From assembly GCA_017615125.1 (NCBI GenBank), contig JAGAAS010000069.1:1-60748 (forward strand): 60,748 nt of DNA, in the 5' to 3' direction. This document shows, one piece after another, positions 19,460 to 46,375 of the stretch; the stretch's first letter is position 1, and every line of letters begins with the position of its first letter. The position numbers and the translations under genes were made by a program. The notes beneath the pieces are model-generated. The model saw only the letters and a program-made list of their open reading frames with translations, made no database searches and was not told where the DNA came from. The DNA is from Bacteroidaceae bacterium. GTDB lineage: Bacteria > Bacteroidota > Bacteroidia > Bacteroidales > Bacteroidaceae.

Positions 19460-19555
19460 GGAAGATTATGAAGAAAGAATCTCGCCGTATGAAGAAAGAA
19501 AACGGCGAGATGTAGAAAGAAAAAAATTTTTTCCCTTCTTCATATTGAAGGCAAG
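19460..19555 (-). repeat. Dispersed repeat copy 1 (CATACGGCGAGATT family)
   Basis: In the 379-bp gap 19258-19636. An exact core on the minus strand is at 19478-19491, flanked on both sides by AAGAAAGAA. A second half-core, CGGCGAGAT, is at 19503-19511, followed by AGAAAGAAAAAAATTTTTT. The stretch 19503-19539 matches 31071-31107 with one mismatch in 37 bases. The rest of the gap holds a CCCTT(T)CTGCAGAAGGG imperfect palindrome near 19421-19438 followed by T-rich DNA, and otherwise nothing recognisable. Confidence 0.8.
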
Positions 19556-19636
19556 TCCTTTCTCCCAAACGGGAGATGCTGACTCGGAAAAATGACGCTT
19601 CTTTCGCAGGAAATGACGGCTATTCGGAAAGGCTGC

Positions 19637-20617
19637 TTATCTGTCGATAACCCAGTTTGTGTTATGGGGCTTTGTGTCGCGCGGATTGTAAAAAAGTGCC
19701 TTTTCATCGGGAATTTTCAGTTCATAGCGACGTCCCGACTTGTTGTTCAATCCGTCTCCGCGAAGCCAAAGATTCTCCGTTTTCAGTTGGGCCAAGCTGA
19801 CGCCTTGTTCCTTCGCAAAAGCCGTAAGGTCGTCTATCTGGGTGTTAACAACTACCGTCTTCTTGGGAGGAATGTAGGGATAAAGGTCTTCGCTACGAAG
19901 CAGGAAGCCGTAACGGGCGGGATTCTCAAAAACCGTCTTCGCAGCAAGCAGACGGAACATGTAGCGCGAGGTTTCCTCCACCAGAAACATGTCGAGAGCA
20001 CTCGTGACGCCCTGCACCTCCTGTTTCTTGGCGACTCCTCCCGTTCCCCCGTTGTAACTGGCTGCTACCGTCATCCAGTCGCCAAACTGCCGATACGATT
20101 TCTTCAGATAGGCACACGCCGCGCGTGTCGATTTCTCGATATTATACCTCTCGTCGATGTTGTCGTTTACCTCCAAACCATACTCACGCCCCGTCGTAGG
20201 CATGAATTGCCACAACCCGACAGCGCCAGCCGATGACTTGATGCGGGGATCAACGTTGCTCTCGATAACCATCAGGTATTTCAGGTCGTCGGGCACGCCA
20301 CACTCCTTGAGGATTGGCTCGATGATAGGGAAGAACCTGTTTGCGCGCTTGATCATCAGCAACGTGAGCTGATGCGAATAGGTGAAGGCCAGCATCTCCC
20401 TATCCATCCGCTCGTGCAAGTCGGCGCGATCGAGCTTGACTGTCTGCCCGGCAAACTCCACCGACGAGGGCACTCGGGGCGAGGACGAAGCCGAAGGAAC
20501 CTCCGTAAGCGGATGCTCATCCTCCGACACCGACTGGCTGGAAATGAGGAACGGGATGCAGAAACCGATAGCTGCGCCGGCAAGGAAAACGAAAAGAGTT
20601 CTATTTTTCATGTTCAT
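19637..20617 (-). CDS. Membrane-bound lytic murein transglycosylase domain protein (MltD-like)
   Basis: 326 residues from ATG at 20617. The longer frame starts at 20644 but would begin at the edge of the -7 box, so I reject it; ATG 20611 is equally possible. A signal or anchor helix lies in the first 25 residues. The SLT domain shows VIESNVDPRIKSSAGAVGLW with the catalytic Glu near 119, then QFMPTTGREYGL and AASYNGGTGG. These enzymes cleave the MurNAc-GlcNAc bond of peptidoglycan, forming 1,6-anhydro ends. The C-terminus contains PPKKTVVVNTQIDDLTAFAK and LKTENLWLRGDGL, which resembles a degenerate LysM repeat. It is divergent from the RNA methyltransferase gene. Confidence 0.88.
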   Translation of the reverse strand: MNMKNRTLFVFLAGAAIGFCIPFLISSQSVSEDEHPLTEVPSASSSPRVPSSVEFAGQTVKLDRADLHERMDREMLAFTYSHQLTLLMIKRANRFFPIIEPILKECGVPDDLKYLMVIESNVDPRIKSSAGAVGLWQFMPTTGREYGLEVNDNIDERYNIEKSTRAACAYLKKSYRQFGDWMTVAASYNGGTGGVAKKQEVQGVTSALDMFLVEETSRYMFRLLAAKTVFENPARYGFLLRSEDLYPYIPPKKTVVVNTQIDDLTAFAKEQGVSLAQLKTENLWLRGDGLNNKSGRRYELKIPDEKALFYNPRDTKPHNTNWVIDR

Positions 20618-20628
20618 ATTTTCAAGGT

Positions 20629-20662
20629 TTTGGCAAAAATACAAATTTTATTTGTAATTTTG
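20629..20662. promoter_or_regulatory. Divergent promoter region (lytic transglycosylase / RNA methyltransferase)
   Basis: On the plus strand TTTG (20629-20632), 22 bases, then TAATTTTG (20655-20662), 28 bases before the TTG start at 20690. On the minus strand TATTTTTG (20641-20634), 17 bases before the ATG at 20617, without a clear -33 box. The two overlap, so the genes may compete for polymerase. Confidence 0.55.
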
Positions 20663-20689
20663 CAGCCAAACAAAAAAAATACTTTCACA

Positions 20690-22249
20690 TTGGAGACATT
20701 TCAACTTATAGCCAAAACCTTCCAAGGACTGGAAGAAGTATTGGCAAAGGAACTTATCGAACTGGGAGCCAACGACATACAGATAGGGCGCCGAATGGTT
20801 TCGTTTACGGGAGATAAAGCCTTGATGTACAAAGCTAACCTCTGCCTGCGTACCGCCATTCGTATCTTGAAGCCCATTCTGCACTTCAAGGCGCAGGATG
20901 CCGATGAAATCTACGAGAAGCTGAAAACGTTCGACTGGGATTCGTATATGGATGCCAACACCAGCTTTGCTGTTGACTCCGTTGTCTACAGCGACGAGTT
21001 CCGGCATTCCAAGTTCGTCGCCTACAGAGTAAAGGACGCCATCGCCGACTACTTCCGCGAGCGCGACGGAAAACGCCCCTTCGTGCAGGTGACAAATCCC
21101 GACCTTCTCTTCCATATTCATATCGCCCAGGAGGACTGCACGCTTGCCCTCGACAGCTCGGGCGAATCGCTGCACAAAAGAGGCTACCGGCAGGAAACCG
21201 TCGGCGCGCCGCTGAACGAAGTCCTTGCTGCCGGCATGATAATGACGACAGGATGGAAGGGAGAGTGTGACCTCATCGACCCTATGTGCGGCTCAGGAAC
21301 CATTCTCATCGAGGCAGCGCTCATTGCCCGCAACATAGCTCCCGGGCTCTTCCGCAAGGAATTTGCCTTCGAAAAGTGGAAGGACTTCAACCAAGAGCTC
21401 TTCGACGAGATTTATAACGACGACTCCAACGAACGGGAATTCGAGCATCATATCTACGGCTACGACAAAGAGTGGAAAGCCGTCAACATCGCCAAAGCCA
21501 ACGTGCGTGCCGCAGGGTTAACCAAAGACATCGACATCGAGCACCGCCCATTCGAGGAATTTGAGCAGCCGGAAGAAAAAGCTATCATCATCACCAACCC
21601 TCCCTACGGCGAGAGGCTTGTTCCCGACGATCTTCTGGAGCTGTACAGCACCATCGGCACGAAGCTGAAACATTGCTTCCAAGGCAACGAAGCCTGGATT
21701 ATCAGCTACAAGGAAGAGTGTTTCAACAAAATAGGACTGAAACCCTCGGTTATCATCCCTCTCTACAACGGAGCCCTTGCCTGCGAATTCCGAAAATACG
21801 AGATGTTCAGCGGAAGATTCAGCGAATTCCGCGAAGGAGGAGAGAAACTTGACAAAGCAGAACGTCCTACCAAAGAGCGTCGCCCCTTGAGGAAGAGACA
21901 GAATATAGGAGAAGCCGCTACCGAAGGAGACACGGGGAACTACAACCGAGAAGATTTCGAAACGAAAGAAGAGCGGCTGGAATACGAAAAGCGCCGTAGT
22001 CGTCACGACACCTTCATGCAAGAACAAAATGCACGCGCCAGAAAAGAACGCGCTGCCAAAAGAAGCGAAGGAGAAGGCTTCCGTGAAAATTTCAGGAAAG
22101 ACGACAAACGACGCGATTTCAAGAAGGGAGCAGAGCGCAACGACAACAAGAAAGGCTACGCCAAGCGCAAAGAAATAAGTGCAAAGCGTTTTGCCAAAGG
22201 AAAAGAAGGGAACAAAGGCGGTTTCCGTAAATCAAAAAACAAAGAATGA
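20690..22249 (+). CDS. THUMP-domain class I SAM-dependent RNA methyltransferase (RlmL/RlmK N-like)
   Basis: 519 residues from TTG at 20690. The frame stays open upstream, but similarity begins at ETFQLIAKTFQGLEEVLAKE and the promoter lies between. A THUMP domain (about 45-165) is followed by the methyltransferase: DPMCGSGT at 197-204 binds SAM, and NPPYGERL starts at 303. This is the layout of the enzymes that make m2G in 23S rRNA (G2445 in E. coli). The last 110 residues are very rich in Lys, Arg and Glu, a flexible RNA-contacting tail. The S9 peptidase gene starts one base after the stop. Confidence 0.9.
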   Translation: METFQLIAKTFQGLEEVLAKELIELGANDIQIGRRMVSFTGDKALMYKANLCLRTAIRILKPILHFKAQDADEIYEKLKTFDWDSYMDANTSFAVDSVVYSDEFRHSKFVAYRVKDAIADYFRERDGKRPFVQVTNPDLLFHIHIAQEDCTLALDSSGESLHKRGYRQETVGAPLNEVLAAGMIMTTGWKGECDLIDPMCGSGTILIEAALIARNIAPGLFRKEFAFEKWKDFNQELFDEIYNDDSNEREFEHHIYGYDKEWKAVNIAKANVRAAGLTKDIDIEHRPFEEFEQPEEKAIIITNPPYGERLVPDDLLELYSTIGTKLKHCFQGNEAWIISYKEECFNKIGLKPSVIIPLYNGALACEFRKYEMFSGRFSEFREGGEKLDKAERPTKERRPLRKRQNIGEAATEGDTGNYNREDFETKEERLEYEKRRSRHDTFMQEQNARARKERAAKRSEGEGFRENFRKDDKRRDFKKGAERNDNKKGYAKRKEISAKRFAKGKEGNKGGFRKSKNKE

Positions 22250-22250
22250 C

Positions 22251-24179
22251 ATGAAAAAGCATATCCTCTTATTCACCCTTTCCACGCTCTTCGCTTTCAC
22301 TCCCTCTATGACAGCCAGCGCACAGGAAATAACTGGGAAGAAGACTTTTTCCCTTGAAGACTTGATTCCCGGAGGCAAGAACTACAGCAAAATGCGCCCC
22401 GAGAACAAGCGCTTCTACTTCGACGGCGAGAAATGCGTAGAAGGCACAAAGGAAAAAGGACCTGACAAGTTCCCCTATAAGTCGTTTACAAGAGAAAACA
22501 ATCTTTTCGTCTCCACAGCCGACGGAAAGGAAATACAGGTTACCGACGAGCCCAAGGGCGTCGTTTGCGGGCAAAGCGTTCACCGAAACGAGTTTGGCAT
22601 CAACGGCGGAACATTCTGGAGCCCGAAAGGCAATCTGCTTGCTTTCTATCGGATGGACGAACGGATGGTGACTGACTATCCGCAAATAGACTATGCCGCG
22701 CGCTTTGCGGAGCTTCGTCCCGACAAATACCCTATGGCGGGAATGACGAGCCACGTTGTCTCGATAGGAATCTTCAACCCGGCAACCAGCGAAACCGTCT
22801 GGCTGGAAACGGGCAATACGGTAGACCGTTACCTGACAAACGTCAGCTGGAGCCCCGATGAAAAGAATGTCTACGTCATCGAACTCAACCGAGACCAGAA
22901 CCATTCGCAGCTGGTACGCTACGATGCGGCAACGGGAGCCCGGGAAGCCATCCTTATCGAGGAAACAAACGAAAAGTATGTCGAGCCCTTGCACCCTATC
23001 GTATTCCTCCCGTGGGACGACTCGCGGTTTATCTATCAGAGCCAGAAGGACGGATACAATCATCTCTACCTTTATAATACTGACGGCACCCTGATAAGAC
23101 AGCTCACCAAAGGAGAATGGGTTGTTGAGAACATTGTCGGTTTCAACACGAAGAAGAAGCTCATCATCTTCCAGAGCCGCGAGACCTCCCCGCTGAGCAT
23201 CACTACGTGGAAAGTTACCCTCAAGGGCAAACGCTCCCTTCTGGGCGACAGCGAAGGAACACACCGAGTTGTGCTTTCCGAAAGCGGAAATCAATTTATC
23301 GACACCTATTCCAAGCCGGATGTTCCCCGAAAAGTGCAATTAGTGAATGTCATCAGCGGAAAGAGTGAAACGCTCTTTGAAGCCGAAGACCCTTGGGCAG
23401 AGTATGATGTTCCAGAGATTACTGTCGGCACCTTGAAGGCTGCCGACGAAGTAACGGATCTTTACTACCGACTTGTAAAGCCCACGAACTTCAACCCCGC
23501 TGAGAAATATCCCGCAGTAGTATACGTCTACGGAGGTCCTCACGCTCAGAACGTCTCGGGAGGATGGAATTGGGATGTCCGAGGATGGGATATCTATATG
23601 GCTCAGCTAGGATATGTTGTCTTTACTCTCGACAATCGAGGAAGCGCAGGCAGAGGGCTTGCCTTTGAGAACAGCACCTTCCGTCATCTGGGTAGAGAGG
23701 AAGCAAAAGACCAGATGGAAGGAGTCAAACTCCTGCAAAGCCTTCCCTTCGTAGATGCAGAGCGCATCGGAGTGCACGGATGGAGCTTCGGAGGATTCAT
23801 GACAATAACGATGATGACTACTTACCCCGAAGTATTCAAGGTTGGTGTTGCAGGAGGTCCTGTCATCGACTGGAAATACTACGAAGTAATGTACGGCGAA
23901 CGATATATGGATACTCCGCAGGACAATCCTGACGGATATGCCGAATCGAGCCTGCTGAACAAAGCCGGCAAGCTGAAAGGAAAGCTGCAAATTATTATCG
24001 GAGGCAACGACGACACCGTTGTTCCGCAGCACACGATGGCTTTCCTCAGAGCCTGCATCGATGCCGAGACACAGCCCGATCTCTTCATCTATCCCGCTCA
24101 GGGGCACAATATGGTTGGAAGAGACAGGATTCACCTGCATCAGCGAATCACCCAGTATTTCGAAGATTACCTTAAATAA
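22251..24179 (+). CDS. Dipeptidyl peptidase IV-like S9 serine peptidase
   Basis: 642 residues from ATG 22251, one base after the upstream stop. The longer frame from 22179 overlaps the RNA methyltransferase and would spoil the signal peptide [20 protein letters not shown]. An N-terminal beta-propeller domain (about 50-385) resembles DPPIV_N. The alpha/beta-hydrolase part has [17 protein letters not shown] with nucleophile S512, D587 or D588 in GGNDDTV, and H619 in PAQGHNM. DPP IV removes X-Pro or X-Ala dipeptides from peptide N-termini, probably in the periplasm here. It is slightly shorter than the usual 700 residues or more. Confidence 0.9.
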
Positions 24180-24201
24180 ACAGCGCGCAAAAGAGTCCCG
24201 A

Positions 24202-24282
24202 TTTTTTTCTTTCTTCAAAAAAATTTTTCCCTTCTTCATACGGCGAGATTCCTTCTCGAAAAAAATTATTCTTTCTACATAA
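24202..24282 (+). repeat. Dispersed repeat copy 2 (CATACGGCGAGATT family)
   Basis: An exact core is at 24237-24250 on the plus strand, within a segment of TTCTTTCTTC, AAAAAAATTTTT and CCTTCTCGAAAAAAA. It fills almost all of the 107-bp gap between the peptidase stop and purD and ends just before the purD start. Confidence 0.8.
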
Positions 24283-24286
24283 TTCT

Positions 24287-25558
24287 ATGAAACTTTTACT
24301 TCTTGGCAGCGGAGGGCGCGAACATGCGCTAGCGTGGAAAATCAGTCAAAGCCCCAGAGTGGAAAAACTCTTCATCGCTCCCGGCAACGCAGGCACAGCC
24401 CTCGTGGGAGAGAACTTGGCTGTGAAAGCTGATGACTTCGGAGCCATTCGGGATGTCGTACTAAAGAACGGCATCGATATGGTTGTCGTAGGCCCTGAAG
24501 ATCCTTTGGTAAAAGGCATCTACGACTTTTTCAAAGCCGATGAGGCTCTCCGCACGGTTCCCGTGATAGGCCCCTCGAAAGCAGGAGCCCTGCTTGAAGG
24601 AAGCAAGAACTTCGCTAAGGAGTTCATGCAAAGGCACGATATTCCCACAGCACGCTACCAGACGTTCACAAGCGAAACGCTGGAACAAGGAATCGCCTTC
24701 CTGCATACGCTCCAAGCCCCTTATGTGTTGAAAGCCGACGGGCTCTGCGCCGGAAAAGGCGTTCTTATCCTTCCTACTCTTGAGGAAGCGGAAAAAGAGC
24801 TCAAGGAGATGCTCGGGGGCATGTTCGGCACAGCATCCAGCCAAGTAGTTATCGAAGAATATCTTGATGGAGTAGAATGTTCCGTCTTCGTTCTTACCGA
24901 CGGAACCAGCTACAAAATCCTTCCCGAAGCCAAAGACTACAAGCGCATCGGAGAAGGCGACACGGGCAACAATACCGGAGGAATGGGCTCCGTCTCGCCC
25001 GTTCCGTTTGCCGATGCCGAATGGATGAAAAAGGTGGAAGACCGAATCATCCGTCCTACCGTCGAAGGCCTTGCAAGTGAGGGAATTGATTATAAGGGCT
25101 TCATCTTCTTCGGCTTGATGAACTGCAAGGGCAATCCTTACGTCATCGAATACAATGTGCGAATGGGAGACCCTGAAACGGAAACCATCATGCTCCGCCT
25201 GAAAAGCGACATCGTCGATCTCTTCGAAGGAGTTGCCAACGGAGACTTGGGCAAAAGGGATTTGGAAATAGACACAAGAAGCGCTGTCTGCATCATGCTC
25301 GTCTCGGGAGGATATCCTGGGCATTACGAAAAAGGATTCCCCATTTCAGGGCTGAAGGATGTGGAAGACAGCATCGTCTTTCACGCAGGAACAGCCCTGA
25401 AGGAAGGACAAGTTGTCACCAACGGAGGGCGCGTGATTGCTGTCAGCTCTTATGGCGCTACCGGGAAGGATGCCCTTGCGCTCTCGCTGAGAAATGCTGA
25501 ACGGATTAACTTCTCCGGAAAGTACTTCCGAAAAGATATTGGGAAGGATATTCTATGA
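24287..25558 (+). CDS. purD: Phosphoribosylamine--glycine ligase
   Basis: 423 residues, the standard length. ATP-grasp features: an opening [67 protein letters not shown] and the late metal-binding RMGDPETE. The enzyme joins 5-phosphoribosylamine and glycine using ATP, the second step of purine synthesis. Its last four bases overlap the next gene (ATGA). The dispersed repeat just upstream occupies the place where the promoter or leader should be. Confidence 0.96.
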
Positions 25559-26550
25559 GAAATTTTCTTGAACAAACCCTTCGCAGCTATTTCCCGCTGA
25601 TAGCAGGAGTGTTGCTTTTCATCATCCTCTGGGGAGGGTGTCTGGCTGGCTTCTGGTGGAAGCCGCTGACGGAGACAACGCTCTCCTTCTTCGGCACTAT
25701 TGTTACCGTCAGCCCCTTGACTCAGAGCATCGTGTCGCCCCTTTTGTACGTCATTTCCGCCTATCTGCTGTTTCGCACTATCGGTGAGTTTCAGCTTTTC
25801 AGCACGCGCACCCATTTCCCGACGGGTTTGTTCTTTGCCTTAGTTGCCGGCGCCTCGTTTCTCCTTCCTCTTCGGGCAGGAAGCATCTGCCTGCCGATAA
25901 TGATGATTGCTGCCTATATGCTGATGACAACGTATCAGCAGCACGACTCTATCAGCGAATACGTCATCGCCTTCGCCCTCGTCAGCCTTGCTTCCATCCT
26001 GTTTCCGAAGTGGCTCCTTCTCGTGCCCTTCTTCCTGATAGGAGGAGGCTTGCTTCAGTCGCTCACTCCGCGCACCTTTATGGCAGCTCTCATCGGGCTG
26101 ATCATTCCCTACTGGATTAGTGCCGGAATGCTGTTCCTTTGCGACGACATCAGTTCCTTTGTTGTGCCTTTCCAGCAGCTGATTCAGTTTGACGCCATCA
26201 AGTATCAGAGCCTGACGCTCAACGAGATTACCGCTGGGGCGCTGCTGCTGCTCATTGCCGTCCCAGGCATCGTGCTTTTCCCGTCAACGCTCTTTGCCAT
26301 CAAGGAAAAGGCGCGCGTCTGCTACCAGTTCCTGCTGCTTGTCTTCGTTGCCGTCTTCATCCTGGCGCTTCTGCAGCCCACGCTGTTTGCCGACTTGTTC
26401 CCGCTGCTGATGACGATTGCCACGTTGTTTGTTACGAATATGCTCCTTTCGGGCAAGTCCCGTCTGGGGGGTGTTTATCTGCTGATGCTTATCATTTTCT
26501 ACCTTGTATATATTTCTCAGCCACTATGGGAGCCTTTGAAGCCTTTCTGA
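25555..26550 (+). CDS. Uncharacterised integral membrane protein
   Basis: 331 residues with about nine to ten hydrophobic helices spread over the whole length (for example 15-35, 58-75, 92-112, 114-125, 143-160, 175-198, 222-242, 256-275 and 305-325). It resembles a Bacteroidetes family of polytopic proteins without known function that I cannot name with certainty. No charged catalytic motif is obvious. It is coupled to purD by a 4-base overlap and to the DedA-like gene by a 25-base overlap. Confidence 0.75.
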
Positions 26551-26993
26551 GCAATTACGGAAACCTGGGAATGTTTCTGGCAGCCCTGCTTTCGGGCTCC
26601 ATTCTTCCCATCAGCAGCGAAGCTATCATGATAGCCTTGCTGGCTGTCGGGATAGAGCCTTGGGGCTTGCTGCTGTGGGGGACCTTGGGGAACATCATCG
26701 GGGGTGTCATCTGCTACTATGCGGGCTCAAGGGGCACGCCGGAGCAGCTTGCCCGCGTCCTTCACATCCGAAACGAGCGAATGGAAAAAGCCGCTGCCAT
26801 CATCCAGAAGTACGGGTGGTGGGCAGCATTCTTCAGTTTCGTCCCGCTGTTGGGAAGCGCCATCCTGATAGCGATGGGCGTCATGCACTCCGACGTTCCG
26901 CGCACGATGGTGTCGATGATTCTGGGCAAGTTCCTGCGGTATTTCGTCATCGTGCTCTCGGCAGTCGGCATCACGTTGATTTTCGCCCATTGA
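26526..26993 (+). CDS. YqaA/DedA-family small membrane protein
   Basis: 155 residues. The N-terminal stretch LSGSILPISSEAIMIALLAV, the glycine-rich GTLGNIIGGVICYYAGSRG and the later helix FFSFVPLLGSAILIAMGVM fit the YqaA branch of the DedA/SNARE-associated superfamily. DedA relatives take part in membrane-lipid homeostasis and some recycle undecaprenyl phosphate, but the YqaA branch has no settled role. Its start lies inside the previous gene, so the two are probably translated together. Confidence 0.85.
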   Translation: MGAFEAFLSNYGNLGMFLAALLSGSILPISSEAIMIALLAVGIEPWGLLLWGTLGNIIGGVICYYAGSRGTPEQLARVLHIRNERMEKAAAIIQKYGWWAAFFSFVPLLGSAILIAMGVMHSDVPRTMVSMILGKFLRYFVIVLSAVGITLIFAH

Positions 26994-27074: not shown

Positions 27075-27160
27075 AATTTTTTCTTTCTACATACGGCGAG
27101 ATTCTTTCTTCATACGGCGAGATTCCTTCTCCAAAAAATTTTATTCTTTCTTCAAAAAAA
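27075..27160 (+). repeat. Dispersed repeat copy 3, two cores in tandem
   Basis: Exact cores at 27090-27103 and 27111-27124 (21-base period), between TTTTTTCTTTCTA and TTCTCCAAAAAATTTTATTC. It lies in the 341-bp gap 26994-27334 between the DedA-like and TMEM260-like genes. The rest of that gap has a candidate -7 box (27283-27290) and no credible gene; short reading frames across the repeat encode only Phe/Ser/Lys-rich low-complexity sequence. Confidence 0.8.
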
Positions 27161-30300: not shown

Positions 30301-30712
30301 CCGAATGTTCGTACAGCTTGCCGATCAGCTGATTGCGGAAGGCAAGAACGACAAAGCGCTTGCCGTTCTCAACAAGTGCGAGGAGGAACTTCCCGCCTAC
30401 AACCTTCCTCACAGCTACTTCATGAGCTATTCTCACAGTATGGCGCTCGACTACATCGAGCTGGGCGAGAAGGAAAAAGGCCTTCAGATCCTTTGCGATA
30501 TGGCCGACAACGAAATAGAGTACGCTACGTGGTACCTCAGCCTTTCGGGCAAGAAGTTTGCTACCAACGCCACAAGCTGCCGCTCTAACATAGATACCCT
30601 CTACCGGCTCATCCGCTTTATGGAAGAGGCCGACAATCAGGAAGTTGTCGACCGCTATTCGAAACTATTCGAGGAGATCTACCAAGCATACAACTTCCGC
30701 ATGAAAGGATGA
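27335..30712 (+). CDS. DUF2723 (TMEM260-like) GT-C membrane glycosyltransferase
   Basis: 1125 residues. The start, with AAVVYCLTIEPSASFWDCPE at 19-38 and HPPGAPFFMLV, is the hallmark of the DUF2723 family: an acidic residue in the first periplasmic loop is typical of GT-C enzymes. About twelve helices cover residues 10-380, another group lies around 560-690, and the C-terminal 430 residues are soluble with helical, TPR-like repeats near 985-1110. The human relative TMEM260 is a protein O-mannosyltransferase. By analogy this may glycosylate secreted proteins, and Bacteroidetes are known to O-glycosylate them; substrate and sugar are inference. It overlaps the deacetylase gene by 4 bases. Confidence 0.85.
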   Translation: MKQYKLVNNLMGWLTFAIAAVVYCLTIEPSASFWDCPEFITTGYKLEVGHPPGAPFFMLVANLFSQLVSDPAQVARMVNTMSALLSAGCILFLFWTITHLTKKLICAKDDEMTTSQLVTIIGAGLVGALAYTFSDTFWYSAVEGEVYAFSSFFTAIVFWFILKWEDVADQPHSDRWIILIAYMIGLSVGVHLLNLLCIPAIVLVYYFNRKKEQVTFWGTVLALVISALLVAVVLYGIVPGIVKVGGWFELLFVNRLHMHFNTGLVLYIILLVASLVWSIFATYKKNKSAQKIAFLVTVGMLGIPFLGHGPLSIIVGILILAALTAVLFISKKDVTRLLNTSLLCLLVMVVGYSSYALIVIRSTANTPMDQNSPEDIFTLGDYLGREQYGSTPLFYGQTYASKVKLRVDGRYCVPEIKKGAPIYGKKEKKTADEKDSYVVVSNRDKYIYAQNMFFPRMYSEPHSHYGAQQINLYDQWVPGGIKGHKVKYDQCGEMQTLTIPTMGENLAFFFNYQVNYMYWRYFLWNFVGRQNDIQGNGELENGNWITGIKFIDNLLVGNQTLLPTELKENKGHNVFYGLPLLLGLIGLFWQAFRGKKGMQQFWIIFFLFFMTGLAIVLYLNQTPMQPRERDYAYAASFYAFTIWIGLSVPAVASWLSKLTKKESVLPAAAATVLCLLVPIQMGSQTWDDHDRSHRFMCRDFGQNYLNTLPDHGYPIIYTNGDNDTFPLWYNQETEQFRTDARVCNLSYLQTPWYIDQMRRPAYDSPSVPISWPRLQYVEGTNDYIAIQSDAKKEILSLYKQNPEAAAARFGEEPFELKNILAHWVQSENSDLHFVPTDSVYIKLDKAAILRSGMMIPKEYLGATDEETMSKMPDRMYISLKGKRSLYKNELMMLEMLAQCNWERPIFMAITVGSENHLGLEPYFVQEGLAYRLTPFNWQQLGYVKDAKREFVIDTEKMYDNLMNRFRFGNMNKEGIYLDETITRMACTHRRMFVQLADQLIAEGKNDKALAVLNKCEEELPAYNLPHSYFMSYSHSMALDYIELGEKEKGLQILCDMADNEIEYATWYLSLSGKKFATNATSCRSNIDTLYRLIRFMEEADNQEVVDRYSKLFEEIYQAYNFRMKG

Positions 30713-31512
30713 TCTTCCAGCATCCGATAAAACCGTTCCGTCTGCTCTATCCCTCTGCCCTCTGGAGAATGGATAGGGCAGACGGTTCTGTTTATCTCAC
30801 TTTCGACGACGGGCCTATTCCCCAATCGACACCTTTCCTGCTGGAGACGCTAAGGCAATTCGACGCGAAAGCAACCTTCTTTGTTGTCGGAGACAACGTA
30901 CGCAAATACCCCGAGCTTTTCGAAGCGATTCTCCGTGAAGGGCATGCTGTGGGAAACCACACATTTCATCATCTTCGGGCTAAAAATTGCAGCGTTGCAC
31001 ACTATCTGGACGACATCGGGAAAGCGCAAGATCTTATCGAAAACGCATCCGAATTTTTCGAGAAAGAATCCGGCGAGATGAAGAAAGAAAAAAATTTTTT
31101 CCCTTCTCGAAAAAATTTTTTGGAGAAGGAAAAAATTTTCCTTGAGAAAGAAGATGAGAATACGGGTGAGAATTACGAGGATGAGAAGAAGGAAAACGAA
31201 AAAAACCCTTCTCTCGACTTGAGCGACAACGAAGCTCTCCCGCTCTTCCGCCCTCCGCACGGAACTATCCCCTTGAGGCACTATCGTGCCGTTGCCGAAA
31301 GGTACCGCATCGTCCAATGGGACATCGTCACGCGTGACTATAACCGACACGTATCGGCAGAACACATCGTGCACACGATTCAAGCCTACGCCCGTCCAGG
31401 TTCTATCATCAATATGCATGACTCGCTGCGCAGCATCGACAAGCTTCACACCGCCCTTCCTGCTGCTCTCGAATGGCTCATCCAGCAAGGCTACACCCTT
31501 CAGACTCTCTGA
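30709..31512 (+). CDS. Polysaccharide deacetylase (NodB-type CE4) with an in-frame repeat insertion
   Basis: 267 residues. NodB motifs: TFDDGP at 31-36 with the metal-binding and catalytic aspartates, HTFHH at 84-88, RPPHG at 181-185, W204 with D205, and H237 in NMHD. Enzymes of this family remove N- or O-acetyl groups from glycans. Between motif 2 and motif 3, residues about 111-175 form an extra, highly charged Lys/Glu/Asn/Phe segment encoded by the dispersed repeat found in intergenic regions. The frame is kept, and all catalytic motifs survive, so the protein may still be active with a disordered loop. It is coupled by ATGA to the upstream gene, and queG starts 1 base after its stop. Confidence 0.88.
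   Translation: MIFQHPIKPFRLLYPSALWRMDRADGSVYLTFDDGPIPQSTPFLLETLRQFDAKATFFVVGDNVRKYPELFEAILREGHAVGNHTFHHLRAKNCSVAHYLDDIGKAQDLIENASEFFEKESGEMKKEKNFFPSRKNFLEKEKIFLEKEDENTGENYEDEKKENEKNPSLDLSDNEALPLFRPPHGTIPLRHYRAVAERYRIVQWDIVTRDYNRHVSAEHIVHTIQAYARPGSIINMHDSLRSIDKLHTALPAALEWLIQQGYTLQTL
31050..31160 (-). repeat. Dispersed repeat copy 4, inside the deacetylase gene
   Basis: A variant core CGGCGAGATG starts at 31071, followed by AAGAAAGAAAAAAATTTTTT and CCCTTCTCGAAAAAATTTTTT, then a GGAGAAGGAAAAAATTTTCC palindromic run. 31071-31107 equals 19503-19539 except for one base. It contributes coding sequence without a stop. Confidence 0.8.
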
Positions 31513-33367: not shown

Positions 33368-33411
33368 ACCTCCCTTCAAGGCAGCTACTCCTTTTCTTTG
33401 TCCAACGCGCG

Positions 33412-33492
33412 ATATGAAGAAAGAATCTCGCCGTATGAAGAAGGGAAAATTTTTTATTCCTTCTCGAAAAAAATTTATGTAGAAAGAAAAAA
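33412..33492 (-). repeat. Dispersed repeat copy 5, between kduI and kduD
   Basis: An exact core on the minus strand is at 33424-33437, with GAAGAAAGAA before it and GAAGAAGGGAAAATTTTTTA, TTCTCGAAAAAAATTTAT and GTAGAAAGAAAAAAT after it. It abuts the kduD start codon, so the kduD translation-initiation region is made of repeat sequence. Confidence 0.82.
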
Positions 33493-33493
33493 T

Positions 33494-35700: not shown

Positions 35701-35841
35701 TCTCTTTTTGCAAAAGGTATCTTCTCTTTTGCAGAATGAAACGCGCAGCACGGAGCTGACAACAAATGCCGGCTCCGCTTATTTTTTCCCTTTTGTAGGA
35801 CTTTCGGGATTTTTTCTTTCTCCAAGTTGTTTATACCATCG

Positions 35842-35920
35842 TGAAGGCTCACGTGTTCCTTCATGAAGGTTAACGTGTTCCTTCGTGAAGGCTAACGTGT
35901 TCCTTCGTGAAGGTATAAAC
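35842..35920 (+). repeat. Tandem repeat, 22-bp period, 3.5 units
   Basis: Units of TGAAGG..AACGTGTTCCTTCG start at 35842, 35864, 35886 and 35908 (partial). CCTTCGTGAAGG spans each junction and can fold. The array is bracketed by GTTTATACC (35829-35837) and its complement GGTATAAAC (35912-35920). It lies in the 453-bp gap between the DUF4861 gene and rpsO, which otherwise holds the two terminators and nothing else recognisable. Confidence 0.85.
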
Positions 35921-36024
35921 AAAATCCGAACTCTACGCGGAAAAAAACCGAATAATAAGGACTATCTCATCATCCGATGAAAGTCAACGGACAATATCTA
36001 TTCGTCAAAAAACTACGAATCCCA

Positions 36025-41470: not shown

Positions 41471-41613
41471 CGCTGCAAAGCCCGTTACCTGCTATTAACC
41501 TATTGGCCTTTAGCCTTTTCGCCCAACACCTGATTATTTGATCATCTTATATCTGATTCCCCGATAAACCTTTTCCTCTCCAAGATGTCTAATAATTGTA
41601 AGAAACATCGGAA

Positions 41614-42414
41614 ATGAAGAAAACCTCATATATCCTTGCCCTCCTTATCCTCATCAGCATAGGCTTAAAGCCGAATGCTGCATGGGGCACGCCGGCGCTT
41701 CTCGCAAGCGACAGCGCTGCTGCGACGCTCATCGACGGCGAGCGCCTCTCCTACACCCTCTTCTTCAACTGGAAGTTCGTCTGGATCAAGGCAGGCGACG
41801 CAAGCCTCACTACCCGCAGCACCACCTACAAGGGCACCGACGCCTACCGCTCCACCCTTCTCGGCTGCACCAACAAGACTGCCGACGCCATCTTCCGCCT
41901 GCGCGACACCCTCACCACCATCGTGCGCTCCGACGCACAGCCGCTCTACTTCGTCAAGCATTGCCAGGAGGGCGACGACATCGTCTACGAGCGCGCCTGG
42001 TTCACACAGCCCAAAGCAGGCACCTACATCGCCAAGCAGACGAAAGTCTATGTCGACGGGCATGAGCGCAACACCGAGTTCTCACGCACGGCGCCCATCT
42101 TCGACATGATAAGCCTCATGCAGTACGCCCGCACGTTCGACATGAGCACCCTCAAGGAAAACCAGCGGCTTGTCTATCCGATGGTGACGGGAAAGAAAGT
42201 CGAGGAGCAGACCCTCATCTATCTGGGAAAGAAAACGGTAGAGAAGCTCTCGGGCGACAAAGCCCCCTGCCACGTGTTCTCCCTCGTGCAGGCCGACGGC
42301 AAGGGCGCCGAAGCCGAACTCCTCCGCTTCTTCATCTCCGACGACGACAAGCACATCCCTATCCAGATAGACATCACGCTGAAGTTCGGTACCGCAAAAG
42401 CAAAACTCAATTGA
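41614..42414 (+). CDS. DUF3108-family periplasmic protein
   Basis: 266 residues with a signal peptide (MKKTSYILALLILISIGLKP). The body, GERLSYTLFFNWKFVWIKAG, a central DTLTTIVRSDAQPLYFVKHC and the end RFFISDDDKHIPIQIDITLK then FGTAKAKLN, fits DUF3108, a beta-rich family of unknown role. It follows the Ig-like lipoprotein after 143 bases and ends at a terminator. Confidence 0.8.
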   Translation: MKKTSYILALLILISIGLKPNAAWGTPALLASDSAAATLIDGERLSYTLFFNWKFVWIKAGDASLTTRSTTYKGTDAYRSTLLGCTNKTADAIFRLRDTLTTIVRSDAQPLYFVKHCQEGDDIVYERAWFTQPKAGTYIAKQTKVYVDGHERNTEFSRTAPIFDMISLMQYARTFDMSTLKENQRLVYPMVTGKKVEEQTLIYLGKKTVEKLSGDKAPCHVFSLVQADGKGAEAELLRFFISDDDKHIPIQIDITLKFGTAKAKLN

Positions 42415-42445
42415 CGGGAAAGATGTCAGCAAATGAAAAAGGCAA

Positions 42446-42484
42446 CGCAGGGATGAACCAGTTTTCATCCCTGCGATTTTTTCT
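42446..42484 (+). terminator. Terminator after the DUF3108 gene
   Basis: CGCAGGGATGAA (42446-42457) pairs perfectly with TTCATCCCTGCG (42464-42475), and ATTTTTTC follows. It lies 32 bases after the stop. Confidence 0.88.
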
Positions 42485-42735
42485 TTCTACATCTCGCGCG
42501 TTTCTTTGAGCATATTTTTCTATGCTCTTCCTCTGTCGCGACTCAGCATAGCTCAAACAAGTTTGGCTCTGCCTTCGCTGCTCCATCGGTTCTTCATACG
42601 GCGAGATTCCTTCTCGAAAAAGAAATATTCCTTCTCCAAAAAAAAATTTCCCTTCTCGAAAAAAAAATTATTCTTTCTTCATACGGATTTTTGAAGAAAG
42701 AAAAAAATCTTTTCCCTTCTCCATAATTCCGTATG
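42476..42735 (+). repeat. Dispersed repeat copy 6, long form
   Basis: Fills most of the 354-bp gap between the convergent DUF3108 and pectinesterase genes. It has an exact core at 42595-42608, repeated TTCCTTCTCGAAAAA and TTCCTTCTCCAAAAA units (42608-42665), and a hairpin of TTCTTTCTTC with GAAGAAAGAA near 42670-42700. No gene is supported here: a 62-codon frame across it encodes only Phe/Ser/Lys-rich sequence. Confidence 0.8.
42502..42614 (+). repeat. 113-bp direct repeat, left copy
   Basis: Identical over 113 bases to 46256-46368 and in the same orientation. The unit has a hairpin GAGCATA-tttttc-TATGCTC (42508-42527), a TCGCGA hexamer, a CAAACAAGTTTG palindrome and the CATACGGCGAGATT core near its right end. 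The two copies bracket the pectinesterase gene. Confidence 0.92.
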
Positions 42736-42768
42736 TGTTCTTCTCTCTCAGCGAAGCTTTCTACTGCA

Positions 42769-45700
42769 TCATTTTACGAAAAACTTCTTTTTCTGCGCGA
42801 TTTTCACGCCGCGCGTATGCGGTGAAGTCTCTCTTCCCGACAAGTCGTATAGTTTGTCGCTGACAGCTGCCGAAGGAGGCATCACGGAAGTATCTACGGC
42901 TGCCGAAGGCTCACTCAGCCCTCCCATTTCGTTAGCAGCACGCACTGTCCAGACACCCGGCTCCGCTCCTACTGCATAGCTGGCGGTAGTAGTGAAATCA
43001 ACTACATTTCCGTCTTTGCACACAGCCCAGCAGAGCACGTGCTCCGACGTGTCCCACGTCATCATGCCCTCTTGAAGGGTTACCCCTTCAGGCGCCGAAG
43101 CCTGCTCGGTAGCTTCCGTCGGGTCCCATCCGTCGCTGTCTCCCATCACGTTCTGCAACGTAAGCTCGGCTGCTTCTTCGGCAGAGAGCACGGGATTGTT
43201 CGTATGTCCGTCGCCGAAAGTTGTCTTGCGTTTCGACATATCGATAGGAGAGCCTGCTGCGGTGCGGGAGTTATATTCGGCAAAGCGCTTGGGCCAACCG
43301 CCGCTCATCTCGCTCCATCCAGCTGCCGAAGGCTTTGCTATCATCGTCGTATTGACATACAGGGCTATCGGTGTGCCCGAGCCCCAGGGGCGTCCGAGAG
43401 TGAACGTGCCGTCTGTTCCGGAGCTTTCGGCAGTAAGCACACAGTCGGAGAAGACGTATCCGTACTTTCGGGGTGCGGAAGGAGCCGTGATGTAGCCTCC
43501 TGTGCCGCAGTTGCGCAGTTCGACTCCGTTCCAGAATCCGTCTCCCTTCCCGCACAAATAGTCCGTTCGCCCGCGTATCACGCCTCCTTCGAAGTAATAT
43601 CGTCCGTTCTGGTTGTTCGAGCAGTAGGTATCCTGATAGCCGTAGAGGCAGACGTTCTTCAGAATGGTCTTGTCGGCATTGTCTTCCAAAGCCTCACCTC
43701 GCCCGCAGGCATCGTTGAGCCCGCTTCGGAGGGTGATGTCCTGCAGATAAGTGTTGGCAGCCGTTTTATTCAGGAAAAGCACAGTGACGTTGTGCAGCCC
43801 CTCAATGGGATAGGCTGTGCCGCTGGGCGTGTTGTCCTTCAGCTCGTTCCGCACGACTGTCTCATCGCGGCTTTCCCCGATGATGGAGACATACGGCGAA
43901 GAGAGGTACGTGATAGGATTTGGGAGCGAGACGCCGTCGTCGTTGGTGATGAACTCCGTCGTACTGTAGGGCAGCAGGTACGAGCCCTTCTTCACGAAGA
44001 TGCGGAAGCGGCTTGTCTTGTCCTTTCGTGCGTCAGCAGCGGCGATTGCCTCCTTGAACGTCCCGTCGTCGGGCACGATGAAGTCAAAGAGCTGCTTCTT
44101 CACGGAGCTTTTGTCGCGAGTGGAGAAATGGATGACGATGTCTTCGGAGAGGATGTTGTTCCCCGACAAATCGGCAACGGAGCCAGCCTTGAGCACAAAG
44201 GTGTAGGCTGTGTTGTATGCCAATCCGCTGTACTCAGCCCTCACGTTCTTCCCCGACACGCTGAGTGCCAGCTCCTTGCCGTCGAGCACAGCGTGGGCGT
44301 CGCTCGTCAGCTGCACCTTCTTGTCGAAGGTGAGGACCACCCTTCCGTTAGCTGAGGCAGAAGACTCCCCTTCGTTAGGCACAGAGCTCTCCAGACGGGG
44401 AGCCTTTCCGTCGTCGATGACCTTGTGCGTGCCGTAGATGAAGATGTTCGTGATGGAGGCGCCGTCGTTGCCGCTGCTTCCTGCTATTTCCGACGTACGG
44501 TCGGCAATCCAGCGGATGAAGAGCTTCGGCTGGTTGTCTGCCTCGTGGGGAAGGAGTATCTCACTCTCTGTCCATCGTTTCGTGCCCTCCATGTGGATGG
44601 AGCCTGCCTTCGTCCACTCCTCTCCGTCAAGGGAAAACTCTACCAGATAGGTGGTATAGGCATTGTAGTTGTAGAGCATCTCGCTCGAGACGATGATGTC
44701 GGTGAAATCCTTCACGTTCACGCACGTCTGCCAGTAAAAGTCGCCTATGCTGCTTTGCCAAGCTACCGCAGCAGGCTTGCCCTCGTAGCCGCCTGCAGCT
44801 TCCTGACTCTTGTCAAGCCAGCCTTTCTCGGTGCCCGAGGCGGAGCGCATCACTAGCACATCCAGGTCGTTGTCGTCAGTGTAGAAGTCAGCCGCGCGGC
44901 TTGAGTTACCCTTGCGGATGAAGTCCCATCCTGCTATCACGTCGTACGTTGCCGAATAGTGAGCCGTGAGGGTTACGTCCTTGTCCATCAGCACCTTAAT
45001 GCTGTTGCTTGTCTGCCCGTCACTCCAATGCGAGAAGGAGAGGATTTTGTTTGACGCAGCCGTGAGCGTCACCTCCGTCTGCTCCTCATACATCTTCTTC
45101 GTATCTATCAGCGTGGGTGCGGGCGAGAGGTCCACCATATAGTCGTTGGCTCCTCCCTCTACGCTAAGGTCTAGGCGGAACGTCTCCAGCTGGGTGAAGT
45201 TAGCTGTGAGCACTTCGTCGTGCGTCACCGTATAGACAAATGACTCCTCCTCCGAGACAACCTTTCCGCTGCCGTCTGTCCAGTTAGTGAAGTGGAAGCC
45301 GAAGTTGGGCGTAGCGCTGACTGTCACCTGCGTGCCCTCGTCGAACTGCGTTCCTGCGGGCGAGACGGCTGTGGAGCAGGCAGCGGGCGGATTGCTGGCG
45401 GTAGTGAGCGAGTAGCGCGCCACATTCTCGCGCGTGCCGTTCAAAATGCCCTCGATGCAGATGTTGGCAAAGCCGCCTTCCTTGCCTTCGTTCACCCCGA
45501 CGGTTGTCTGCAGAACAAATTCTTCTGTGGTACTGTATCGCCGCTGAAGCTCCTCGGGAAGGGTTATCTCAAAAAAGTTGGCATAGTTCGACTCAGAGCC
45601 GTATTTATCCTCGCTCTGCGTCTTGTTGTTGCGTGCTGCCGTGAACGAGCCCAGGCTCTGCGACGTTTCGTTTGCAAAGATGCTCACTACGACTCCGTCC

Positions 45701-46122
45701 TTCGCATCGGTGCCGAAGCGCTGGATGTTCCCGCTCACCTTTGTGGGAGTGAACGTGAGCCCTCTTGCAGGCTTCACTACCCAGCGCACCGACTTGGTGG
45801 AGCCCGAAGGACGCAGCTTGATGTACGTAACTCCTTGCGGAGAGCCCGTTCCCGTGCCTGTCAGCTCCAAGTCGCCCAGCTCCACGTTGACAACCGTAAA
45901 CCCCTCCTCGGGCGAGGCAGCAAACGTCTCGGGCTTCAATACCGACGAGAAGGGCCACGTGACTCGCGCCTCCACATTGTCGTACGTATCGTCGTCGGCA
46001 AGAAGCATTCCTGCTGCCTGCGGCGTATTAGTGCTTTCAAGAACATCCCTCGAAGGGTTTCCTGCTATCATAGAAACACTTGCCGTCAGGCATGCAGCAA
46101 AGAGTATTATCCTGTTTTTCAT
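42769..46122 (-). CDS. Secreted multidomain pectinesterase-like protein (CE8)
   Basis: 1117 residues from ATG 46122, where a signal peptide MKNRIILFAACLTASVSMIA begins; the ATG at 46188 only adds 22 residues before it. Order: beta-rich N-terminal domain (to about 230), two glycine/tryptophan InlB-like repeats (FGFHFTNWTDGSG; LSFSHWSDGQ), a discoidin-like sandwich (about 405-560), a Big_5 Ig domain, then the CE8 right-handed helix from about 677. CE8 landmarks: YGYQDTYC near 829, GRTDYLCGKGDGFWNG near 853 in place of the usual DFIFG, and LGRPW near 909. The end, LYDLSGRETSPH and VKIAQKKKFFVK, is a Bacteroidales secretion-type tail. Pectinesterases remove methyl esters from homogalacturonan. 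It is flanked by 113-bp direct repeats. Confidence 0.87.
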   Translation of the reverse strand: MKNRIILFAACLTASVSMIAGNPSRDVLESTNTPQAAGMLLADDDTYDNVEARVTWPFSSVLKPETFAASPEEGFTVVNVELGDLELTGTGTGSPQGVTYIKLRPSGSTKSVRWVVKPARGLTFTPTKVSGNIQRFGTDAKDGVVVSIFANETSQSLGSFTAARNNKTQSEDKYGSESNYANFFEITLPEELQRRYSTTEEFVLQTTVGVNEGKEGGFANICIEGILNGTRENVARYSLTTASNPPAACSTAVSPAGTQFDEGTQVTVSATPNFGFHFTNWTDGSGKVVSEEESFVYTVTHDEVLTANFTQLETFRLDLSVEGGANDYMVDLSPAPTLIDTKKMYEEQTEVTLTAASNKILSFSHWSDGQTSNSIKVLMDKDVTLTAHYSATYDVIAGWDFIRKGNSSRAADFYTDDNDLDVLVMRSASGTEKGWLDKSQEAAGGYEGKPAAVAWQSSIGDFYWQTCVNVKDFTDIIVSSEMLYNYNAYTTYLVEFSLDGEEWTKAGSIHMEGTKRWTESEILLPHEADNQPKLFIRWIADRTSEIAGSSGNDGASITNIFIYGTHKVIDDGKAPRLESSVPNEGESSASANGRVVLTFDKKVQLTSDAHAVLDGKELALSVSGKNVRAEYSGLAYNTAYTFVLKAGSVADLSGNNILSEDIVIHFSTRDKSSVKKQLFDFIVPDDGTFKEAIAAADARKDKTSRFRIFVKKGSYLLPYSTTEFITNDDGVSLPNPITYLSSPYVSIIGESRDETVVRNELKDNTPSGTAYPIEGLHNVTVLFLNKTAANTYLQDITLRSGLNDACGRGEALEDNADKTILKNVCLYGYQDTYCSNNQNGRYYFEGGVIRGRTDYLCGKGDGFWNGVELRNCGTGGYITAPSAPRKYGYVFSDCVLTAESSGTDGTFTLGRPWGSGTPIALYVNTTMIAKPSAAGWSEMSGGWPKRFAEYNSRTAAGSPIDMSKRKTTFGDGHTNNPVLSAEEAAELTLQNVMGDSDGWDPTEATEQASAPEGVTLQEGMMTWDTSEHVLCWAVCKDGNVVDFTTTASYAVGAEPGVWTVRAANEMGGLSEPSAAVDTSVMPPSAAVSDKLYDLSGRETSPHTRGVKIAQKKKFFVK

Positions 46123-46189
46123 CGCTTTGTTGGTTTTTCGTTTGTAAAGATAGGCAGAACTCACGAAAATTCCTCGAAGTTTCTCCAAA

Positions 46190-46375
46190 AAGTCCTATCA
46201 CGAAAGAAAAAACTGTTTTTTCGAAAGAAATTTTTTCTTTCTTCATACGGCGAGATTCTTTGAGCATATTTTTCTATGCTCTTCCTCTGTCGCGACTCAG
46301 CATAGCTCAAACAAGTTTGGCTCTGCCTTCGCTGCTCCATCGGTTCTTCATACGGCGAGATTCCTTCTTAATATG
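46190..46375 (+). repeat. Dispersed repeat copy 7, two cores
   Basis: Exact cores at 46244-46257 and 46349-46362, the second inside the 113-bp unit. It starts with TCACGAAAGAAAAAACTG and lies in the 445-bp gap between the divergent pectinesterase and SGNH genes. The rest of that gap (46376-46567) is AT-rich leader with the SGNH promoter. Confidence 0.8.
46256..46368 (+). repeat. 113-bp direct repeat, right copy
   Basis: Base-for-base identical to 42502-42614. Its first bases overlap the end of another core, so the copy seems to have been added at, or generated from, a pre-existing core. The start-to-start distance is 3754 bases. Confidence 0.92.

What the first reader, a model, noticed from the sequence alone, without database searches (positions are those of the whole stretch)
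19460..46375. Dispersed repeat family built on CATACGGCGAGATT
Seen directly: exact copies of the 14-base core lie at 19478, 24237, 27090, 27111, 33424, 42595, 46244 and 46349, on both strands, with related cores at 19503 and 31071. All are embedded in strongly purine/pyrimidine-skewed DNA with TTCTTTCTTC, AAAAAATTTTTT and TTCTCGAAAAA modules of about 80-250 bp. Spacing and orientation follow no gene pattern: copies occur between codirectional, convergent and divergent genes and once inside a gene. I know no named Bacteroidales element that matches. It behaves like a miniature mobile or palindromic element spreading without its own transposase.
Basis: partly seen in the sequence, partly recalled or inferred. 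Interest (0 to 1): 0.8.

Follow-up and report, generated by a model that had tools for sequence, protein, structure and literature searches.

The report
Dispersed 21-base mosaic repeat arrays
Two related bacteria of the Bacteroidaceae carry hundreds of short DNA arrays, each a different mix of a few shared 'words' set exactly two turns of the DNA helix apart, a mosaic repeat that looks copied between sites rather than carried by an ordinary transposon.

Summary
The 14-base core occurs 8 times in the window and 144 times in the 3.03-Mb genome. It is one word of a larger system: 9-base linkers (YCYTTCTNS) alternate with 12-base near-palindromic spacers on a strict 21-base pitch, with linkers in either orientation yet in register. 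I estimate about 300 arrays in this genome and 380 in one sister species; 17 other species of the genus are at control level. Orthologous sites can be empty, or hold an array of different content. Four arrays sit in frame inside ORFs.

I found no fixed element, no conserved terminal repeat, no Y1-type transposase and little RNA-level signal. Neighbouring units are not more alike than the genome-wide pool in G000 (slightly more in G015), yet near-identical multi-unit tracts are shared; one exact 113-base tract in the window runs from linker to linker.

Best reading: a DNA-level mosaic repeat (BIME-like in style), kept alike by copying of short tracts between arrays, with a constrained two-turn pitch. 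Transposase mobility is not shown; function is inferred.

The parts
19458..19556 (.). Array 1: four in-register linkers (19470-19541) plus flanking half-units, orientation ---+; holds the core at 19478 (-) and a variant at 19503
   Evidence: G015 has an array of different content at the orthologous site
24202..24284 (+). Array 2, between the ORF ending at 24179 and purD; core at 24237
   Evidence: G015 has a differently built, inverted array here; L102-L105 (G003, G001, G009, G016) have a short array-free gap
27076..27160 (+). Array 3; cores at 27090 and 27111, exactly 21 bases apart
   Evidence: orthologous G015 gap has no array
31059..31193 (+). Array 4, inside the polysaccharide deacetylase ORF 30709-31512, read in frame (FEKESGEMKKEKNFFPSRKNFLEKE...)
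   Evidence: (PF01522, residues 23-114); the G015 orthologue lacks the insert
30709..31512 (+). Host gene of array 4: polysaccharide deacetylase, 267 aa
33395..33493 (.). Array 5, ends at the start codon (33494) of a short-chain dehydrogenase gene; core at 33424 (-)
   Evidence: the G015 array at the same site shares the last units and the ATG but not the upstream units
42482..42728 (.). Arrays 6a (42482-42658) and 6b (42672-42722), between convergent genes; core at 42595; the two are one base out of register with each other
   Evidence: no array at the orthologous G015 gap
46236..46374 (+). Array 7, between divergent genes; cores at 46244 and 46349, 105 bases (5 x 21) apart
42502..42614 (+). 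113-base tract identical to 46256-46368; starts at one linker (TTCTTTGAGC) and stops inside another (TTCCTTCT), with different flanks: a recent copy between two arrays 3,754 bases apart
46256..46368 (+). Partner of the identical 113-base tract
42508..42589 (+). Embedded module X (hairpin GAGCATA...TATGCTC, then TCTTCCTCTGTCGCGACTC ... GCTGCTCCATCGG), a separate dispersed repeat nested in the array
   Evidence: its 19-base core occurs 22 times in G000
46262..46343 (+). Second copy of module X in the window

Best explanation
It is a dispersed mosaic DNA repeat. Each array is a string of 21-base units (9-base pyrimidine linker plus 12-base near-palindromic spacer of an A/T or a G/C type) from a lexicon shared across one genome. 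SHOWN: the rigid pitch, the shared lexicon, presence in two related species and not in the 17 others of the genus searched, different contents at the same site in the sister species, in-frame copies in proteins, rarity of close neighbours, and one exact tract shared by two arrays with ends in linkers. INFERRED: arrays seed new intergenic sites and exchange short tracts by recombination or template switching through the linkers; inversions stay in register because they turn on the palindromic spacers; and the 21-base pitch (two helical turns) is kept because something acts on these arrays as double-stranded DNA every two turns, most simply a phased protein or a DNA-shape effect. The lexicon then drifts in concert within a species.
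For: Pitch: in-register pairs 356 vs 3-13 at other distances; spacer length 12 in 311 of 324 (G000) and 76 of 79 (G015) linker-linker steps with 4-20 bases between; A(n)T(m) spacers total 12 in 58 of 61 and 10 of 10 although n runs from 4 to 9. DNA level: orientation neutral to transcription, 120:106 linkers, p 0.39; RNA folding only somewhat below that of other intergenic DNA (mean z -1.95 and -2.04 vs -1.30). Copying: 113-base identical tract; 72-base words with a 90% or better partner in another array: 24 of 47 vs 8.7 under a first-order Markov null (five G000 contigs), 69 of 135 vs 35.5 (all G000), 4 of 37 vs 1.3, within the null range (G015). Shuffling: adjacent linkers identical 0.09 vs 0.14 pool expectation (five G000 contigs), 0.15 vs 0.16 (all G000), 0.17 vs 0.11 (G015); association is strongest across the spacer centre and weakest across a linker. 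Concerted drift: core 144 vs 7 copies. Exchange or deletion between near neighbours would explain why arrays less than 2.5 kb apart are rare: 1 vs 7.5-8.0 expected (p 0.001 or less, G000) and 2 vs 7.6-8.9 (p 0.0045 or less, G015).
Against: In 2 of 7 copies with the embedded module, an indel in its loop shifted the register by exactly that indel and nothing restored it, so pitch across the module is inherited, not policed. Adjacent linkers in G015 are somewhat more alike than its pool (0.17 vs 0.11), and the copy test there is within the null range. The strong link across the spacer centre may reflect the palindrome rather than inheritance. No binding protein, recombinase or active exchange was identified. 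Purely neutral copying could also keep the pitch if arrays are young.
Confidence: 0.5

Rival explanations
1. Non-autonomous transposable element (MITE) with an internal minisatellite, of the BrickBuilt kind, moved by a host transposase.
For: Clade-restricted dispersal with array-free orthologous sites. Other 21-23-base arrays in the same genome do have inverted ends, and G139 carries near-identical dispersed 21-base arrays.
Against: No terminal repeat or leader/tail shared by the arrays, no exact four-linker word shared by two arrays, orthologous arrays of different content, no Y1_Tnp in either genome (other transposase families not tested).
Confidence: 0.2
2. Selected binding arrays: every unit is an operator-like site for one DNA-binding or nucleoid protein, kept by selection at each locus, and the lexicon drifts with the protein's specificity.
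For: Exact two-turn pitch and constant spacer length; orientation-neutral; close neighbours rare; 43 of 172 gaps of 80 bases or more occupied in G000 and 45 of 148 in G015.
Against: The commonest G/C spacer is a hetero-palindrome (ATACGGCGAGAT: 33 of 134 spacers in five G000 contigs, where the homo-palindrome ATACGGCCGTAT occurs once; 93 against 8 for ATCTCGCGAGAT in the larger, core-enriched set), which looks like a copied word rather than an optimum for a symmetric dimer. No significant gene-class preference (convergent p 0.17, divergent p 0.45). No candidate protein.
Confidence: 0.22
3. Transcription terminators or other RNA hairpins at gene ends.
For: Arrays lie nearer the upstream stop (median 53) than the downstream start (median 129.5) in 56 codirectional cases; some inverted unit pairs can pair; folding is somewhat stronger than in other gaps.
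Against: The folding excess is small; no significant preference for convergent gaps; in-frame copies inside genes; exact DNA pitch unexplained; no Rfam match at the arrays above a family's cut-off.
Confidence: 0.05
4. Ordinary minisatellite growth by local slippage.
For: Arrays are tandem and edges are degenerate, as in satellites; in G015 adjacent linkers are somewhat more alike than the pool.
Against: In G000 neighbouring units are not more alike than units from other loci, linkers invert in register, and the same words recur at many loci.
Confidence: 0.03

Closest known systems
BIMEs / REP elements (bacterial interspersed mosaic elements, with RAYT transposases)
   Same: Many extragenic mosaic arrays of short near-palindromic units and linkers in both orientations, species-specific (PMC2817692: abstract and found passages read)
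   Different: REP units are 20-40 bp (PMC3733652, abstract start in a listing) and go with RAYT genes; here the pitch is 21 bases and no Y1_Tnp was found in the two bearing genomes
BrickBuilt MITE with 23-nt minisatellite, Porphyromonas gingivalis (Bacteroidales)
   Same: Dispersed intergenic arrays of about two-turn units in the same order of bacteria, with conserved and variable parts of the unit (PMC4596501: abstract, section 5 and section 7 part 1 read)
   Different: BrickBuilt in strain ATCC 33277: 19 copies, all intergenic, leader and tail, IS5-like terminal repeats, tandem direct repeats. Here: about 300 arrays (estimate), no leader, tail or terminal repeat found, units inverted in register, arrays built from a shared lexicon
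Rickettsia palindromic elements and enterobacterial RU repeats found inside genes
   Same: Short repeats tolerated in frame in proteins (RPE recalled, not read; RU repeats: title and abstract start of PMC2759123 seen in listing)
   Different: Those are single elements (RU 103-168 bp); here any number of 7-codon units stays in frame
Pneumococcal BOX (boxA-boxB-boxC) modular repeats
   Same: Modular intergenic repeat with variable internal unit number (structure recalled; only the listing of PMC3049150 seen)
   Different: BOX has fixed end modules (recalled); none found here

Membership tests
BIME/REP (RAYT-associated) | Mosaic of palindromic units and linkers, mostly extragenic, high copy | tested here: met
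   93 arrays in 804 kb of two genomes, 89 of 93 outside genes by my gene calls and ORF checks
BIME/REP (RAYT-associated) | Cognate Y1 tyrosine transposase (RAYT) in the genome | tested here: not met
   PF01797 not found in G000 or G015; found in 7 of 19 genomes of the genus, none of them array-bearing. The two drafts are 87% and 91% complete
BIME/REP (RAYT-associated) | REP stem-loop of 20-40 bases with GTAG/CGTC-type tag (from the title and abstract start of PMC3733652) | not tested
   no such tag is apparent to the eye, but no search was run
BrickBuilt / MITE | Terminal inverted repeats matching a host IS | tested here: not met
   318 array edges (two overlapping arrays counted twice) show no conserved end beyond one half-spacer and a degenerate outer unit; IS ends were not compared
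BrickBuilt / MITE | Target-site duplication | tested here: inconclusive
   filled and empty sites are too diverged to read one
BrickBuilt / MITE | Copies of one recognisable element | tested here: not met
   0 of 133 (G000) and 0 of 37 (G015) exact four-linker words shared between arrays; near copies do exist and so does one 113-base exact tract through module X
Minisatellite | Neighbouring units more alike than distant ones | tested here: not met
   for G000 (five contigs: linkers 0.09 vs 0.14, spacers 0.07 vs 0.10); in G015 linkers are above the pool (0.17 vs 0.11), spacers not (0.03 vs 0.05)
Phased protein-binding array | A protein that binds with the same pitch | not testable with these tools
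   no binding data

The most novel reading that the evidence does not exclude
A new class of chromosomal element: combinatorial two-turn lattices, each locus a different sentence from a species-specific lexicon, rewritten by exchange through 9-base linkers and read as double-stranded DNA by a phased protein that sets array spacing along the chromosome. Lexicon and reader would co-evolve, so sister species write different words at the same sites.
Probability: 0.18. Interest if true: 0.85.

Novelty: new variant of a known kind. Interest (0 to 1): 0.6.

Why it matters
If right, about 1% of these genomes is a repeat that is neither a plain transposon copy family nor a slippage satellite but a shuffled lattice with fixed helical pitch. 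It makes two open questions testable in one system: how repeats keep in concert across a bacterial chromosome without an evident transposase, and whether regularly pitched intergenic arrays have a structural job. The in-frame copies in a polysaccharide deacetylase and, in the sister species, in what look like DNA polymerase I and a YidD-TatD fusion also show a source of 7-codon insertions in proteins.

Tried and rejected
RNA structure: small excess only, no Rfam family above cut-off at the arrays. Phage or plasmid carriage: a 20-base word of the array gave 0 hits in viral contigs; a plasmid search with window 42380-42760 gave one 66-base match, within module X, in a Phocaeicola plasmid. RAYT system: not found. 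A strictly combinatorial model (units drawn independently) was my reading after and was withdrawn, which show more near copies than independent or Markov drawing gives in G000. Pitch policed across the embedded module: spoken against by 2 of 7 copies. Gene-class or transcription-direction preference: none significant. Regular chromosomal spacing as such: coefficient of variation not different from random (p 0.25); only short-range avoidance is significant.

Limits: the list shows 100 of 144 places; I fetched loci for 93 of those 100 (one search shows these 93 and 7 from G015). 'G000 all' is therefore enriched for core-bearing loci; the five G000 contigs used whole (C33, C40, C53, C24, and C32 to base 60,000) include the window, which was picked for this finding (without it 38 arrays in 369 kb). 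Two of 114 arrays in 'G000 all' overlap others; counts for the five contigs and G015 are not touched, and word counts given here are the cleaned ones (searches ran with the two extra). Overlapping words are not independent. Gene calls are from my own simple caller. The palindrome filter missed some true arrays, such as purD in G015; one search replaced it, but the occupancy count was not rerun. One search's Fisher test (p 0.016) used 8 off-length spacers; with the recount, 7 of 318 (lengths 11 or 13) p is 0.013 and with 13 of 324 (any other length) 0.035.
Full report
WHAT WAS CHECKED. The window is contig 33 of a 3.03-Mb draft genome, G000, 87% complete. That genome has 144 exact copies, 77 and 67 on the two strands, and none of the reversed control. 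In 18 other species of the genus the core occurs 7 times in one, G015, and not at all in 17. A 20-base version was found in named genomes only in MAG JAGCFO01 (Bacteroidaceae bacterium RGIG9746, yak omasum; four loci, on contigs whose lengths equal those of G015 C5 and C26, so I take it to be G015) and once in a contig labelled Paludibacteraceae, which holds a three-linker array of the same words; that search may leave out the window's own genome. None was found in viral contigs.

THE ANATOMY. Printing 100 copies in register (93 from G000, 7 from G015) shows that the core is one word of a system. Nine-base linkers YCYTTCTNS (also TTGTTCTCC, TCTTTGAGC and others) alternate with 12-base spacers: an A/T type (AAAAAATTTTTT, AAAAAAATTTTT, ATAATTTTTTTT) and a G/C type (ATACGGCGAGAT, ATCTCGCCGTAT, ATCTCGCGAGAT; in G015 also ATCTCGCGATAT and ATATCGCGCGCT). 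Linker starts are 21 bases apart 198 times, 20 or 22 bases 4 times in all, and inverted linkers mostly keep the register. With a wider linker definition, pairs number 356 at distance 21 against 3-13 at other distances from 15 to 29 (G000), and 126 against 1-7 (G015). The spacer is 12 bases in 311 of 324 and 76 of 79 steps. In pure A(n)T(m) spacers n runs from 4 to 9 while the sum is 12 in 58 of 61 and 10 of 10. Arrays of two or more linkers with recognisable half-spacers: 46 in 430 kb of G000, 47 in 374 kb of G015, 1 and 0 in the reversed sequences. Scaled by the genome-wide pair counts this gives about 296 and 382 arrays per genome, about 1% of the DNA.

WHO HAS IT. The linker-pair pattern counts 470 in G000 and 406 in G015. 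In the other 299 genomes of the family searched it is 0-8, similar to the reversed control, except for 17 in G139. G139, G140 and G039 hold 21-base arrays of other sequence. So within what was searched the system belongs to two related species, with the one odd contig as an exception. G015 has the closest purD, 83% identical, the others found 79% or less. Pitches of 21-23 bases recur in other repeat families of G000. In a scan of periods 9-39, G000 shows 21, 22 and 23 and almost nothing else; G015 shows 21 first (2.1 per 100 kb), then 27 (1.6), with 9, 22 and 33 at 0.8. Of six other genomes in that scan, G002 has one 22-base and G231 one 21-base case, G014 has 14- and 21-base cases that look like heptamer repeats, and G006, G027 and G159 have no period of 20-23.

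SITES. By my gene of 93 arrays are between codirectional genes, 21 convergent, 14 divergent and 3 inside genes; one of the 55 is really inside an ORF, so 4 of 93 are intragenic. The gaps of 80 bases or more divide 204:54:62, and the differences are not significant (p 0.17 and 0.45). Linker orientation is neutral to transcription (120:106, p 0.39). Intragenic cases, all in an open frame: the window's polysaccharide deacetylase (array 31059-31193; PF01522; the G015 orthologue has no insert); in G015, what I recognise as DNA polymerase I, with the array between its 5' and 3' domains, a DUF349-like protein with the array near its N terminus and a YidD-TatD-like fusion. The three G015 names are recalled from the sequences, not searched. 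Since 21 bases are 7 codons, any number of units keeps the frame. Arrays avoid each other at short range: fewer than 2.5 kb apart 1 observed against 7.5-8.0 expected in G000, and 2 against 7.6-8.9 in G015, p 0.0045 or less in each test.

COMPARISON OF SITES. Of 14 G000 arrays (13 sites, as two share one gap) with matching flanks in the G015 contigs, 7 have an array at the G015 site under a strict filter and an eighth (purD) by eye. In the reverse direction it is 7 of 11. Between 25% and 30% of gaps are occupied overall (43 of 172, 45 of 148), so sites seem shared more than chance but far from always. Contents differ: at purD the G015 array is inverted and differently built, while four species with the same gene order (G003, G001, G009, G016) have only a short gap. 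At 33395-33493 the last units and the start codon agree and the upstream units do not. At the C7 locus the first linker starts 19 bases after the stop codon in both species but the units that follow differ (distance counted by eye). These look like old sites with rewritten interiors. Clean insertion scars cannot be read at this distance (matching window DNA is 77% identical).

HOW IT MAY SPREAD. Neighbouring linkers are identical no more often than linkers drawn from the pool in G000 (0.09 vs 0.14 in the five contigs; 0.15 vs 0.16 in all), and somewhat more often in G015 (0.17 vs 0.11), so local slippage is not the main source. No exact word of four consecutive linkers (72 bases) is shared by two arrays; 9 of 221 distinct 51-base words and 33 of 230 distinct 30-base words are in G000, 0 of 74 and 1 of 117 in G015. 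Allowing mismatches, more 72-base words have a 90% partner elsewhere than a Markov null gives (24 vs 8.7 of 47; 69 vs 35.5 of 135; 4 vs 1.3 of 37, the last within the null range). So in G000 at least there is copying of several units at a time plus reshuffling. Association between parts is highest across the spacer centre and lowest across a linker, though the palindrome itself may cause the former. The clearest single case lies in the window: 42502-42614 and 46256-46368 are identical over 113 bases, starting at a linker and stopping inside another, with different flanks; it spans module X and so was not part of the word test. Array edges show one half-spacer and then a degenerate outer unit (information at positions 10-22 outward), with no terminal repeat. 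A Y1 transposase was not found in the two bearing genomes. I infer tract exchange through the linkers by recombination or template switching; a dedicated enzyme is not excluded.

WHY THE PITCH. Constant length with variable A/T boundary is not what homopolymer slippage gives. An internal comparison points the same way: in the embedded module X a loop indel is seen in 2 of 7 copies, against 7 of 318 lattice spacers one base off (p 0.013) or 13 of 324 with any other length (p 0.035); the numbers are small. But those two indels moved the downstream units out of register and nothing corrected it. The RNA signal is small. I therefore favour a constraint on double-stranded DNA at two helical turns, and mark it as inference.

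KNOWN KINDS. In style it is closest to BIMEs (PMC2817692, abstract and passages) and, by taxon and unit length, to BrickBuilt (PMC4596501, abstract, section 5 and section 7 part 1), but it fails tested defining features of both (RAYT; terminal repeats; copies of one element). Searches for a published description of such arrays in Bacteroidales (listings only) showed none among the rows listed; the library lacks most subscription papers.

Noticed in passing
window 35830-35922; also G000 C40:130551-130636 and C53:32131-32203: A different 22-base array family (CGTGTTCCTTCGTGAAGGCTAA) with inverted ends TTGTTTATACC/GGTATAAACAA in the window copy, MITE-like in build.
   Followed up: partly
window 10846-10901, 10952-11015 and 52349-52418; G000 C53:61570, 87615, 23654; C32:57569, 42902; C40:27995, 99303, 101622: At least six further 21-23-base array families in the same genome, several at more than one site and several with inverted ends by eye; one (CACGTTGGGACA...) resembles arrays at three sites in G015.
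   Followed up: partly
window 42508-42589 and 46262-46343; 19-base core 22 times in G000, 6 in G001, 4 in G017; found in 9 of 201 genomes of the family: Module X (TCTTCCTCTGTCGCGACTC...GCTGCTCCATCGG), a short dispersed repeat that in G000 mostly sits in these arrays and in several copies from G001 and G017 sits in other local short repeats; some copies near contig ends; a 66-base relative in a Phocaeicola plasmid and one viral contig with a second copy beside it.
   Followed up: partly
L173-L184 (G139): A 21-base array family (GTAGAAGGAATTGATGAATTA) found at ten places in the fetched stretches, in part nearly identical copies and sometimes next to a 23-base array: an ordinary copy family, useful as contrast.
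   Followed up: partly
L152:7275-7325: A three-linker array next to a tRNA-like sequence and an integrase-like ORF (both by eye) in a contig labelled Paludibacteraceae (JAFYZR010000098.1); either transfer or a misplaced contig.
   Followed up: no
L158 and L160 (G014), L101 (G011), L182 (G139) and L192 (G039): Heptamer-like or other short tandem repeats in DNA of other species of the genus and family, which also give periods of 14, 21 and 28.
   Followed up: no
G015 C5 about 87966-90815 (-): A gene that looks like DNA polymerase I carrying an in-frame array between its domains.
   Followed up: partly
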